Of a stretch of DNA of 11,958 bases, positions 5,289 to 8,567 are shown one piece after another. The translations under genes and the position numbers were made by a program. The notes beneath the pieces are model-generated. The model searched no databases. It saw only the letters and a program-made list of their open reading frames with translations, and had not been told where the DNA came from. The DNA comes from an uncultured Clostridia bacterium. Lineage in GTDB: Bacteria > Bacillota > Clostridia > Oscillospirales > Ruminococcaceae. The first letter of the stretch is position 1; every line of letters begins with the position of its first letter. Location of the stretch: contig CAMVBT010000044.1 of NCBI GenBank assembly GCA_947165805.1, positions 1 through 11,958 on the forward strand, written 5' to 3'.

Positions 5289-7328
5289 TTATACTTGTAC
5301 TTTGGTGTTTGTGGATACGGATTTGAACGGTATGCCTCCGCCCTTGAAGAAGCGGCTGAACAGCTCATAGAACTCCAGTCGGAGCACCTGTATGCCGACG
5401 ATGAAGCCCTCAAAGCCGGTAACGAATATGTTGCCGAAGATGAGCACCACTACGCTGCCCGCGCCGTCAAACATATCGGCTATGATGCTGAATACCAGCA
5501 TTAGTCCGGCGTGGCTGAGCACGAAGCCGCCGATACGCAGGTAAGACATGGTGTTCGACAGGTAGGTGAGGCATATCTCGAAGAGGTCTATGAAGCCTTC
5601 GATGATGAACATACCGACGGATTTCTTCTCTCCGGTACCGCCGCCCTCCTGCATCTTCGCGAGCTTGGCTTTTAGTCCGGTGTCTATGTTACCGGCGTTC
5701 TTAGCGCCTTTGACGGGTTTCATTCCTCTGTTCTCCATAGCGTGGAGCAGCGGCTCCTTGAAGAATATCAGCGCCAGAGGCAGCACTATCAGGCAGATGA
5801 TATACACGGGAGTCATTATCTGTATGCCCAGCGCTATGCTGCATCCGAGACCGGCAATAAGCGAAGCGTAGAACACAAATCCGCAGATGCCGCTGGCTCC
5901 GAAGATGCCCGCGTCAAGATCCCCCATCCGCAGGCTCACGACTATGTTGACTATCATCGTGGCAAGTATCAGGCAGATGCCGACGATCAGCGCCAGTATG
6001 AGGAACATATTCGACGCCTTGAATACGTCGTGGGGAGGTTCGGTGTAGCCGAAAAGCTCATATATCTGCGGGAACCGGAAGAACGGTTCGATTATATCCT
6101 CATTCCCGAATACCGAACCGTACAGGATACCGAACAGAGCGCTGGATAATCCTATTCTTGCTATGATCGGCGCGAGTCCCGCTTTCGTTACCTTAGTGAG
6201 TATGATGCCGAGTATCATTATGCAGAGCCCCTGACCGAGATCTCCGAACATCATTCCGTAAAGCAGCATATACGTTATCGCCACGAGAGGCGTCGGGTCC
6301 ATTCCGTTCGCCGCGGGCAGTCCGTACATCTTCACGAACATCTCGAAGGGTCTGAACAGCCAGTTGTTCTTCAGCCTTACCGGAGCCTTGTCGTCCGATG
6401 TCACGTCACGGATATTCACGGTGACATCTCCGACAGAATTTATCATCTCCGTGAAGTGCTTTGCTTCTTTTGACGGTATATAGCCGGAGAAATGGAAGCT
6501 GTTGTCGAATACGGTGACGTTGGCACGCAGCTCGTAGCTGCTGTTCAGGGAGATCAGCTTCGCGTAGACCTTTGAGAGCTTCTCGCTCTCGCGGTCGGCT
6601 ATTTCCTTCAGCTTTTCCTCCACCTCGCCCAGCTTCACCAGATCATCGTCCATATCGGAGAGCAGTTTTCTCGCTGCTTCCTCGGTGCTTCCCTTCAGGT
6701 AATCCGGGAGTACCGAGCGCTCAAAGCCGAGGCTTCCGAACAGGAAGTCGATATTGTTGACCTCCGCCGATGTCGTTATGTACAGGCACCATGTATAATT
6801 CTCCTTCTTCTCGAACGGGTAGAAGAAGAACGTCTTTTCGCTGTAGAAATCGAGCTTTCGTATGCTTCCGTTCGGTATCCGTCCGAAGCGCGGCTTGAGA
6901 TACTTACAGGCGAGCAGCTCCGCGAAGTCCGCGTCGAAGCCCGAGAAGCCCAGCAGGTTGTGATATATGGCGCCCTTTGAGCGTATCTCGCTGTTTATGC
7001 GCATCTGCTCCTCATAGAGCCCGGCCTGCTGTTTGTCCAGCTCATCGAGATACTTCTTGAAGTCCGCGCCGACGTTATATTCTATATCATCGAAGGGCGC
7101 GTCCTCGTCGAGCTTTACGCCGAGGTTATCCGCAATGGCTCTCGCGCGCTTTATCATGCGCTCGTACAGTCCCTTGTCCTTGAGATTTTTCGCGGCAAGC
7201 TCGTTGCGCGACGTATCGGGCGGCGGGTTCATGTGGAAGCACCCGCTCTCGCAGCACTTTTTCAGCGTCTTGTTGACCTTTCTGAGGCTGCCTTCTATAT
7301 AGACGAGCGATACTTTTTCTATTGCCAA
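5289..7328 (-). CDS. ntpI: V/A-type ATPase subunit I (membrane stator, a-subunit homologue)
   Basis: I place the start at the TTG at 7326-7328, giving 679 aa. It has GAGGGGG 7 nt upstream and begins (M)AIEKVSLVYIEG, which is how this family starts. An in-frame ATG at 7401-7403 would add 25 residues, but these are encoded by the 7-bp repeats of the inserted element and lack a good ribosome binding site. The N-terminal half (about 1-325) is the cytoplasmic arm with coiled-coil stretches that hold the peripheral stalks. From about 345 on there are some seven to eight membrane segments. NTMSYLRIGGFVLSHAG contains the essential arginine (about Arg598), and QVLRLEFYELFSRFF supplies the second conserved Arg (about 650). 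This subunit forms the ion half-channels against the K ring. The gene ends TAA 20 nt before the K start. Confidence 0.95.
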   Translation of the reverse strand: MAIEKVSLVYIEGSLRKVNKTLKKCCESGCFHMNPPPDTSRNELAAKNLKDKGLYERMIKRARAIADNLGVKLDEDAPFDDIEYNVGADFKKYLDELDKQQAGLYEEQMRINSEIRSKGAIYHNLLGFSGFDADFAELLACKYLKPRFGRIPNGSIRKLDFYSEKTFFFYPFEKKENYTWCLYITTSAEVNNIDFLFGSLGFERSVLPDYLKGSTEEAARKLLSDMDDDLVKLGEVEEKLKEIADRESEKLSKVYAKLISLNSSYELRANVTVFDNSFHFSGYIPSKEAKHFTEMINSVGDVTVNIRDVTSDDKAPVRLKNNWLFRPFEMFVKMYGLPAANGMDPTPLVAITYMLLYGMMFGDLGQGLCIMILGIILTKVTKAGLAPIIARIGLSSALFGILYGSVFGNEDIIEPFFRFPQIYELFGYTEPPHDVFKASNMFLILALIVGICLILATMIVNIVVSLRMGDLDAGIFGASGICGFVFYASLIAGLGCSIALGIQIMTPVYIICLIVLPLALIFFKEPLLHAMENRGMKPVKGAKNAGNIDTGLKAKLAKMQEGGGTGEKKSVGMFIIEGFIDLFEICLTYLSNTMSYLRIGGFVLSHAGLMLVFSIIADMFDGAGSVVVLIFGNIFVTGFEGFIVGIQVLRLEFYELFSRFFKGGGIPFKSVSTNTKVQV

Positions 7329-7335
7329 ATTTCTG

Positions 7336-7342
7336 CCCCCTC
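7336..7342 (-). promoter_or_regulatory. Ribosome binding site deciding the TTG start of ntpI
   Basis: On the minus strand GAGGGGG is followed by 7 nt and then TTG (7326-7328). No comparable purine-rich site lies before the upstream in-frame ATG at 7401-7403, which sits inside a hairpin of the inserted element. This supports a non-ATG start and keeps repeat-encoded residues out of the protein. Confidence 0.7.
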
Positions 7343-7348
7343 TTTTTT

Positions 7349-7550
7349 TAATTGATAATTGACAATTGATAATTGATAATTTTGGTGTCCGCTCCGCGGA
7401 CATATTTGAATCGTGACGAGACCCGGTATTTATCTGCCGTATTTATGGTTTTTCCGGTCGGGCAGCAAAGCTTTCCGTTTTGTCACGATCCGGACAGGCC
7501 GCCGGAGGCGGCACCTCAACTGTTAATTGTACACTGTAAACTGTTAACTG
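7349..7550. mobile_element. 202-bp MITE-like palindromic element with heptamer-repeat ends
   Basis: This element fills the junction between the stop of subunit C and the leader of subunit I, and has no reading frame of its own. The two ends are imperfect inverted repeats of 69 bp each (7349-7417 against 7482-7550) that align without a gap. Outermost are five 7-bp units (7349-7383 read on plus; 7516-7550 read on minus; consensus YARTTRA). Next comes GGTG and a GC-rich hairpin with loop TCC (7386-7402; 7498-7512). Last is ATCGTGAC (7410-7417), matched by GTCACGAT (7482-7489). A 64-nt core separates the arms. Similar AT-rich heptamer arrays are known as interspersed repeats in several bacterial phyla. 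No transposase and no clear target-site duplication are visible, so mobility is inferred from the symmetry. It is transcribed within the operon and may form a structured RNA there. Confidence 0.72.
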
Positions 7551-8567
7551 CTAAATGATCAGGTACTTTTCCATTTCTTCCGGGTGCAGCCCGTAGCGTA
7601 TGCCCTCGATTATGCGGAAAAGGTTTGTGCTCTCTGCCTTGAACAGCATCATGAGCGAGTAGAGGGCTTCCACTTCATTGGCGCTTACCGCGAGGCGGTG
7701 CCGGAAGTAGCGGTACTCCGATACGTTGACGTTTATCTCCGGGATATCGGAGACCTTTGCCGTCGCGACACGCTCGGTCACGAACATCTCCCGCAGCACC
7801 GCTACCGGGTCGTTCGTTCTCAGAGCCTCGTCTATCTTCTTGCGGCGCAGACGTTTATGATACGGTATCAGCAGCTCGCTGATACGTTCGGGGTCGGCCT
7901 TGAACACGCTTTTCATACGATAGCACATCAAAAGGTTGTCCGCGTCTGTCTTGCGCAGGAAGAAATCCTTTAGCAGCTCCCGGGAGCTGCCGCGGGCGAA
8001 CCTGTCGATCTGCCCGAACGCCCACTGTATGTAGCACACGTTTATCGTGGTTATGATCTTGTTCAGATCGGGCTCCGGGTCAGTCAGCAGACCGTGCAGG
8101 GGCTTTTTGTACGGCGTGGGTTCAAGGATCAGCGCCAGCATCGAAAGGTCTGAGGCTTCCGCGACGCTTATCGGGTCAAAGCAGATATACTTCGTCACAT
8201 ACTCCGGAAAGGAGAACATGAAGCTCTCCTGCGCGCCGGAGGCTATGGCGGTGACTGCCTTGATGAGCTGTTCGGTCTCGATGTGTCTGATGTAGAAACT
8301 CATTATTCCGGTCTTGTCGCCGGTATGGAATTTCAGTACGCGAATGTAGTTGTCAAAGACGCTGCGCTCTATAAGAGCCTCGGCCTGCGCGCGGTGTATC
8401 GCCGATTCGTCGGTGTCCGCGAATGCCGCCGCGTACAGCGGGCGCGTCTTGAGAAACGCGGCCACGGCTCCGACCGACGGCTTATGCATCAGCGTCGTAT
8501 ATTCGTCCTTCGTGAGGAGCTTGCCAGATATAGCCCTTGATTTGGCTGTCACGGCATTATTCGCCAT
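7551..8567 (-). CDS. ntpC: V/A-type ATPase subunit C (AC39/d-type rotor-ring adaptor)
   Basis: The predicted protein is 338 aa, the normal size for the mostly helical V-ATPase C/AC39 family. It forms a funnel-shaped cap on the K ring and docks the D-F shaft to the membrane rotor. Family traits visible are an N-terminal segment with AKSRAISGKLLTKDEYTTLM, repeated helix bundles, the IQWAFGQIDRFARGSSRELL-like middle region, and the C-terminal NLFRIIEGIRYGLHPEEMEKYLI, which resembles the conserved end of the family (N-x-x-x-I-x-x-x-K/R-x-x-x-x-P-E-E). The start ATG has GGGAGG 8 nt upstream and lies 19 nt after the G/H stop. The stop TAG directly abuts the first 7-bp repeat of the inserted element, so the insertion has neither shortened nor extended the protein visibly. 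The sequence is intact. Confidence 0.93.
   Translation of the reverse strand: MANNAVTAKSRAISGKLLTKDEYTTLMHKPSVGAVAAFLKTRPLYAAAFADTDESAIHRAQAEALIERSVFDNYIRVLKFHTGDKTGIMSFYIRHIETEQLIKAVTAIASGAQESFMFSFPEYVTKYICFDPISVAEASDLSMLALILEPTPYKKPLHGLLTDPEPDLNKIITTINVCYIQWAFGQIDRFARGSSRELLKDFFLRKTDADNLLMCYRMKSVFKADPERISELLIPYHKRLRRKKIDEALRTNDPVAVLREMFVTERVATAKVSDIPEINVNVSEYRYFRHRLAVSANEVEALYSLMMLFKAESTNLFRIIEGIRYGLHPEEMEKYLII

What the first reader, a model, noticed from the sequence alone, without database searches (positions are those of the whole stretch)
7349..7550. 202-bp symmetrical element inserted between ntpC and ntpI
The two ends match as inverted repeats of 69 bp (7349-7417 and 7550-7482) with no indel: 35 nt of heptamers, 26 nt including GGTG and a hairpin, then ATCGTGAC. 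Such exact register over 69 bp, despite many substitutions, suggests selection on the structure or recent descent from a mobile ancestor. It sits inside an essential multi-subunit operon with its right edge touching the TAG stop of ntpC, and the frames on both sides are intact. No description of it as a named element is known to me, though AT-rich heptamer repeats are familiar in other phyla.
Basis: partly seen in the sequence, partly recalled or inferred. Interest (0 to 1): 0.72.

Follow-up and report, generated by a model that had tools for sequence, protein, structure and literature searches.

The report
Mobile heptamer-hairpin repeat at gene ends
The 202-base element between two genes of an ion-pumping ATPase is one copy of a family of small, apparently mobile repeats in gut bacteria, for which no description was found here; each copy carries hairpins, and in some species copies sit right at the stop signal of genes.

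Summary
In detail: 7349-7550 has two 69-nt inverted arms in exact register (43/69 identical; best of 5000 shuffles 32). It is not an operon-specific RNA. The same arm grammar (heptamers YARTKGA, then GGWG, a 5-7 bp hairpin and ATTTnAAT) gives 51 arm matches in its own genome and matches in 44 of 71 genus genomes, patchily across the order (65 of 295). Relatives lack it at ntpC-ntpI with clean empty sites, and at seven other sites compared. Hairpin sequence varies but pairing is kept. The two hairpins of one element mostly differ in sequence (5 of 53 pairs equal, 22 expected). In one genome 44 of 59 arrays start at an upstream gene's stop codon, 6% expected; elsewhere this is weaker. Architecture resembles REP/BIME (REPIN) repeats, but their Y1/RAYT transposase is absent from 11 of 16 high-copy genomes, the tetranucleotide is GGWG, and heptamer arrays are extra. 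No target duplication was seen and no mover found. Best reading: a REPIN-like, non-autonomous mobile repeat family with an unknown mover.

The parts
7349..7550 (.). whole element: two inverted heptamer-hairpin arms around a 64-nt centre
   Evidence: absent in relatives at this site
7349..7383 (+). left heptamer array TAATTGA TAATTGA CAATTGA TAATTGA TAATTTT
7384..7387 (+). left tetranucleotide GGTG
7387..7401 (+). left hairpin GTCCGC-TCC-GCGGAC
7410..7417 (+). left ATCGTGAC, complementary to its right copy
7418..7481 (.). centre, not shared as a whole with the other copies printed from this genome
7482..7489 (-). right ATCGTGAC
7498..7512 (-). right hairpin GCCGCC-TCC-GGCGGC, stem different from the left one
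7512..7515 (-). right tetranucleotide GGTG
7516..7550 (-). right heptamer array CAGTTAA CAGTTTA CAGTGTA CAATTAA CAGTTGA, starting directly after the ntpC stop
7551..8567 (-). ntpC (name from the finding), stop TAG at 7553-7551
5289..7328 (-). ntpI (name from the finding), probable start TTG 7328-7326 behind GAGGGGG

Best explanation
The element is one copy of a non-autonomous, short interspersed mobile repeat family, REPIN/BIME-like in build: two GGWG-hairpin units in inverse orientation, with lineage-specific 7-nt arrays outside. Shown: many dispersed copies, empty sites in relatives, paired hairpin changes, two mostly different stems per element, no target duplication of 3 nt or more seen by eye at the sites compared, and a strong bias in some genomes to begin at a gene's stop codon. 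Inferred: a factor acting in trans recognises each folded hairpin with its GGWG foot on single-stranded nucleic acid, and copies are joined into gene ends without target duplication. Copies in essential operons survive because they fall between the stop codon and the next ribosome site. The mover is unidentified and is not a resident Y1/RAYT transposase in most high-copy carriers searched.
For: Empty sites: G053 and G065 lack it at ntpC-ntpI and relatives lack arm and array at seven further G000 sites (rechecked in 86). Structure: 35 of 38 arms found without a hairpin requirement carry a perfect stem >=5 bp, about 0.003 per arm expected; 51 two-sided changes against 16 shuffled (rows pre-selected for pairing). 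Different stems: 5 of 53 pairs equal against 22.3 re-paired. Stop anchoring: 44 of 59 arms in a 392-kb sample of G044 against 6.4% simulated. Two sister genomes differ in presence, type and tandem number.
Against: No autonomous partner: of 20 ORFs listed in the 8 wide brackets (450-5000 bp) 16 were scanned in Pfam and none had a transposase family; five had no family at all among those plus the unscanned four remain open. None of Y1, RT or PDDEXK_2 is present in all high-copy genomes; other families were not tried. No movement was observed, only differences between species. Stop anchoring is weak in G007 (4 of 27), G141 (6 of 32) and G005 (6 of 22), so it may be selection in some lineages rather than targeting. 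Many arms are solo, so the pair may not be the only moving unit. Some absences (the L344 site in G005) could be deletions.
Confidence: 0.72

Rival explanations
1. A functional cis-element at gene ends: heptamers and hairpin act in the mRNA after the stop codon (stability, re-initiation or a binding protein), spread by any means and kept by selection. Orientation and stop contact follow from function.
For: In the G044 sample 32 of 37 solo arms read stop, array, hairpin (33 of 38 by the rule). Of 15 GTAG-repeat readings away from arms none is nearer than 14 nt to a stop, though 6 lie within 30 nt. RNA fold of the window element z = -3.2; hairpin pairing kept; some solo arms run straight into a ribosome site.
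Against: Empty sites in relatives at eight loci; 27 of 71 genus genomes show no arm match under strict filters; weak stop contact elsewhere; stop codons in the arrays not clearly above a permuted null.
Confidence: 0.35
2. A true REP/BIME (REPIN) family moved by a RAYT-type Y1 transposase that was lost or missed in most genomes.
For: Hairpin with a tetranucleotide at its 5' foot, inverse pairs with a variable linker, tandem copies; such features are described for REP/BIME in PMC8266576 (passages).
Against: Y1 absent in 11 of 16 genomes with >=45 arms, 7 of these 11 at least 90% complete; Y1 in 11 of 44 genomes with arms and 9 of 27 without. None of the 29 Y1 loci fetched holds an arm or array. 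GGWG instead of GTAG; heptamer arrays extra. A GTAG repeat exists beside it as a separate family in G044.
Confidence: 0.2
3. A MITE of a cut-and-paste (DDE) insertion sequence with terminal inverted repeats.
Against: No target duplication of 3 nt or more seen by eye at the sites read; arm sequence varies while pairing is kept; stems of the two ends mostly differ; no larger element with the same ends and a transposase in what was scanned.
Confidence: 0.12
4. Chance or low-complexity similarity of AT-rich heptamers.
For: Heptamers followed by GGTG also occur in Bacteroidales, Chamaesiphon and others without a hairpin: 0 of 14 such loci have a stem >=5 bp.
Against: 52 of the other 66 loci shown (Clostridia or same-genus records, several per genome) have the hairpin; shuffles and empty sites as above.
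Confidence: 0.01

Closest known systems
REP / BIME / REPIN repeats with TnpAREP (RAYT)
   Same: palindrome preceded by a tetranucleotide, in some systems a perfect stem (8 bp with a 3-nt loop, or 5 bp); inverse pairs with variable linker, often tandem; mostly intergenic, high copy (PMC8266576 passages; see also PMC3733652 passages)
   Different: GGWG not GTAG; heptamer arrays outside; the two stems mostly differ in sequence; starts at stop codons in some genomes; no Y1 gene found in most high-copy carriers
TAACTGA heptamer direct repeats (MacGregor 2015, PMC4679880; abstract and two sections read)
   Same: intergenic 7-nt direct repeats, one base from TAATTGA, patchy among genomes, near gene borders
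   Different: no GGWG-hairpin or inverse pair in the parts read; in the Orange Guaymas genome mostly just upstream of start codons; Beggiatoaceae, Cyanobacteria, Bacteroidetes
IS200/IS605 ends (IS608, ISDra2)
   Same: hairpin with a guide tetranucleotide at its foot (passages); no target duplication and the TTGAT target of ISDra2, which recalls AATTGAY, are recalled
   Different: no TnpA found here in most carriers; inverse symmetrical ends; arrays
MITEs (features recalled)
   Same: small, inverted ends, dispersed
   Different: no target duplication seen, no parent insertion sequence found, end sequence not conserved

Membership tests
REP/BIME/REPIN | palindrome that folds, preceded by a conserved tetranucleotide | tested here: met
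   35 of 38 genus arms with GGWG carry a perfect stem; 64 of 115 in the pattern-scan loci
REP/BIME/REPIN | tetranucleotide GTAG (most often) | tested here: not met
   of 221 array ends GGTG 136, GGAG 23, though many of these loci were fetched by a GGTG pattern
REP/BIME/REPIN | inverse pairs with variable linker, tandem copies | tested here: met
   70 non-identical pairs, 92-449 bp; three tandem copies in G005, one in its sister
REP/BIME/REPIN | RAYT (Y1) gene in the genome and beside the repeats | tested here: not met
   no match in 11 of 16 high-copy genomes, some of them incomplete; 0 of 29 Y1 loci hold arms or arrays
MITE of a DDE element | target site duplication | tested here: not met
   none of 3 nt or more seen by eye at the sites compared
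MITE of a DDE element | terminal inverted repeats shared with an autonomous element | tested here: inconclusive
   8 wide brackets in the loci held, 16 of 20 ORFs scanned, no transposase; whole genomes not read
IS200/IS605-type single-strand element | ssDNA hairpin ends with guide and cleavage tetranucleotides | tested here: inconclusive
   anatomy fits, cleavage site not identified
IS200/IS605-type single-strand element | lagging-strand bias of insertion | not tested
   most genomes are drafts in many contigs
TAACTGA heptamer repeats | two or more TAACTGA in direct repeat | tested here: not met
   the window element holds no TAACTGA on either strand
Known RNA family | Rfam match at gathering score | tested here: not met
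   0 matches in the window

The most novel reading that the evidence does not exclude
A RAYT-independent class of REPIN-like elements in which a still unknown machinery acts on gene ends: insertion or retention is keyed to the translation stop. The 7-nt period and the hairpin shape are kept while their sequences drift lineage by lineage, and the two hairpins are kept different so that each folds alone, as left and right ends of a single-strand intermediate. In the G044 sample 44 array starts sit at stops, in DNA with 329 ORFs of at least 100 codons.
Probability: 0.3. Interest if true: 0.8.

Novelty: new variant of a known kind. Interest (0 to 1): 0.62.

Why it matters
If right, a large repeat family reshapes the ends of genes in many uncultured gut Clostridia, between genes of essential operons too. 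It offers a natural experiment on how short hairpin repeats spread without the transposase that explains REPINs elsewhere, and it joins two literatures (heptamer arrays and REP-like hairpins) that were separate in the papers seen here. The rule of two different stems per element gives a testable hint of local folding on a single strand.

Tried and rejected
Y1/RAYT as resident mover: rejected for most high-copy carriers. Reverse transcriptase (PF00078) and PDDEXK_2 (PF12784): no match in 14 and 9 of the 16 genomes with >=45 arms, so neither is general, although G044 has 30 PDDEXK_2 matches. No other mover family was searched.

Autonomous element with the same ends: 8 brackets of 450-5000 bp with 20 ORFs of at least 90 codons; 16 ORFs were scanned in Pfam. 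Found: RuvC, RuvA, RecQ pieces, SNZ, SNO, cupin, pyruvate kinase, rubredoxin, an S24/HTH protein; six had no family; no transposase. L276:3684-4568 has no Pfam hit; that it looks Rpn-like is my own reading.

Arrays as all-frame stop cassettes: 2.47 frames closed against 2.32 permuted (maximum of 300: 2.479), not supported.

Operon-specific riboswitch or leader: rejected by empty sites and by 0 Rfam matches. Plasmid or phage carriage: no match of the 202 nt in the two collections; two IMG/VR contigs hold the arm pattern, not followed up.

Literature: seven searches listed no paper that names this family; those on the heptamer letters listed 12 papers, none on a bacterial repeat by title. Judged from listings. 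The library lacks most subscription journals, so this is weak evidence of absence.

Limits: genes were called as ORFs of at least 90-100 codons, not by a gene finder; the arm grammar in the scripts is mine; R1 counts per genome are capped near 77 or 18 and strict filters lose weak matches; many genomes are incomplete; copies share descent, so re-pairing and shuffle tests are not independent events. In one search four fetched ntpC loci gave no two-gene measurement (two partial, one without a hit, one not entered).

Full report
What is in the window. Its arms match in reverse complement without a gap at 43 of 69 positions, more than any of 5000 shuffles (maximum 32). Each arm reads: five heptamers, GGTG, a perfect 6-bp hairpin with a 3-nt loop, a few nucleotides, ATCGTGAC. 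The stems differ between the arms. Rfam has no match in the window. Folded as RNA from the ntpC side, z = -3.24; as DNA from the plus strand, z = -2.82.

It is a dispersed repeat. Own genome: 28 further partial matches. A covariance model R1 of the arm (40 arms) gives 51 matches in G000, a pair counting twice, and matches in 44 of 71 genomes of the genus, from one to a cap near 77, and in 65 of 295 genomes and 39 of 148 genera drawn from the order. A stem of at least 5 bp follows GGTG in 0 of 14 of the shown loci from Bacteroidales, Chamaesiphon and other groups, and in 52 of the other 66 (Clostridia or same-genus records). Equal contig lengths suggest that 'Bacteroides sp. NALB_7961_8' is G007, which genome search places in the window's genus.

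Empty sites. Of 23 relatives' ntpC loci, 19 gave both genes; in 18 of these ntpC and ntpI are -4 to 151 nt apart, and the nineteenth (G038) is unreliable because its ntpI alignment starts at residue 55. None of the 23 loci (about 3-4 kb each) holds an arm or a run of three heptamers by my grammar. At the DNA level, G053 (86-91% identical flanks) and G065 (81-87%) lack the element; in nine aligned relatives the 202 nt are absent, with other short sequence in two of them (L256, L262). At seven further G000 sites (loci L061, L010, L009, L015, L062 and two in L057) the relatives' loci hold neither arm nor array; for L009 only the left flank is shared, and at some sites other DNA stands in the gap (L298, L302, L310). 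At L061 the relatives' stop TAA lies where the array begins with TAA. At L010 three of four relatives end with TGA directly after the shared codon while G000 ends two codons later. At L009 the TGA is kept. I saw no target duplication of 3 nt or more, by eye.

Sister genomes. G005 and G084 are 93.6% identical over 80 kb of alignments. A pair in G084 (L344:5885-6045) is missing in G005, where a shorter stretch stands; another site carries a different, doubled element in the sister; a third has three tandem copies in G005 and one in G084. Several other elements are shared in place. This shows turnover; for the first, loss cannot be excluded.

Structure is kept, sequence is not. Anchors of two heptamers plus GGWG, with no hairpin required, gave 38 arms from genus loci; 35 have a perfect stem of at least 5 bp starting at the G of GGWG (0.003 per arm in shuffles). 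In the pattern-scan loci it was 64 of 115. On 40 arms pre-selected for pairing, 51 cells change on both sides against 16 in shuffles; the 100% pairing there is by construction. Of 70 non-identical pairs 61 have different stems in the two arms; within eight genomes 5 of 53 are equal against 22.3 when arms are re-paired within a genome, minimum 12 in 5000. Copies share descent, so this is strong by lineage rather than by count. Heptamers follow YARTKGA with lineage-specific favourites, CAATTGA and TAATTGA commonest.

Contact with stop codons. In 392 kb of G044, 44 of 59 arms begin between -45 and +30 nt of the stop of the same-strand gene, mostly with the stop inside or at the start of the array (42 of 58 between -40 and +25). 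Simulated insertion into free intergenic DNA gives 6.4%. As a control, 15 GTAG-repeat readings of the same genome away from arms have their stop 14 nt or more upstream; 6 of the 15 lie within 30 nt, so these too are closer than the simulation (17% of its stop class), but none touches the stop. Of 37 solo arms 32 obey the rule; of 22 paired arms 12 do, and 9 others face the start of the next gene, as one arm does in the window. Elsewhere: G000 8 of 21, G007 4 of 27, other genus loci 4 of 11, pattern-scan loci 21 of 71; G041 5 of 10, G005 6 of 22, G020 0 of 1; G141 6 of 32, G217 0 of 6, G246 1 of 4, G338 2 of 8, G037 1 of 2. So it is a strong feature of some lineages, not of the family.

Search for a mover. 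Y1 transposase (PF01797) is found in 20 of 71 genus genomes: 11 of 44 with arms and 9 of 27 without. Of 16 genomes with at least 45 arms, 11 have none, seven of these at least 90% complete (G005, G020, G021, G044, G048, G063, G071). None of the 29 Y1 loci fetched contains an arm or array. RT and PDDEXK_2 families are also not general. Of 20 ORFs in wide brackets 16 were scanned and none is a transposase by Pfam.

How it most likely works. The anatomy is that of a REP/BIME: PMC8266576 (passages seen) describes palindromes preceded by a tetranucleotide, in inverse pairs with a variable linker and often in tandem, with the tetranucleotide proposed as a guide for the cleavage site. By analogy I infer that GGWG plus hairpin is recognised as a folded single strand, that different stems keep the two hairpins from pairing with each other, and that joining leaves no target duplication. 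This is inference; no enzyme is known. The contact with stops may be targeting or survival of copies that do least harm.

Novelty. The heptamers recall TAACTGA repeats (PMC4679880; abstract and two sections read), which in the Orange Guaymas genome lie mostly upstream of start codons and are not described with hairpins in the parts I read. The searches listed no paper on this family. I file it as a new variant of a known kind: REPIN-like in build, failing the RAYT and GTAG tests.

Noticed in passing
L061 about 1090-1260 and L228 from 2512: A different repeat with GGTACCTCTAAAAACC at its end is nested inside the C139 copy of the element in G000 and also stands behind ntpC in G002.
   Followed up: no
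L064-L069, L071 (G007): Several G007 copies sit inside a larger repeat with ends like GGGGCTGTAAAAAA and TTTTTTACAGCCCC, which may have carried them along.
   Followed up: no
L269-L288 (G044): 25 GTAGGGGACGGGC repeats (GTAG-type, REP-like), some directly behind the arms, form a second repeat family.
   Followed up: partly
genome G044: 30 PDDEXK_2 (Rpn-type) matches, many partial; the next highest genus genome has 11.
   Followed up: partly
L272:7881, L280:12344, L283:437 (G044): Several solo arms are followed by a strong hairpin of the type CACCGCCC...GGGCGGTG and T-rich DNA that looks like an intrinsic terminator.
   Followed up: no
window 7329-7403: The ntpI frame stays open into the element up to an ATG at 7403, so the insertion could offer an upstream start.
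   Followed up: no
L319:6831-6991 and L357: The same site holds different elements of the family in two sister genomes, as if one had replaced the other.
   Followed up: no
records JAMPHV01: A MAG named Bacteroides sp. has contigs of the same lengths as G007, which the tool places in the window's genus; probably misnamed.
   Followed up: partly
L223, L224: Two IMG/VR contigs carry the heptamer-GGTG pattern followed by a 6-bp stem.
   Followed up: no
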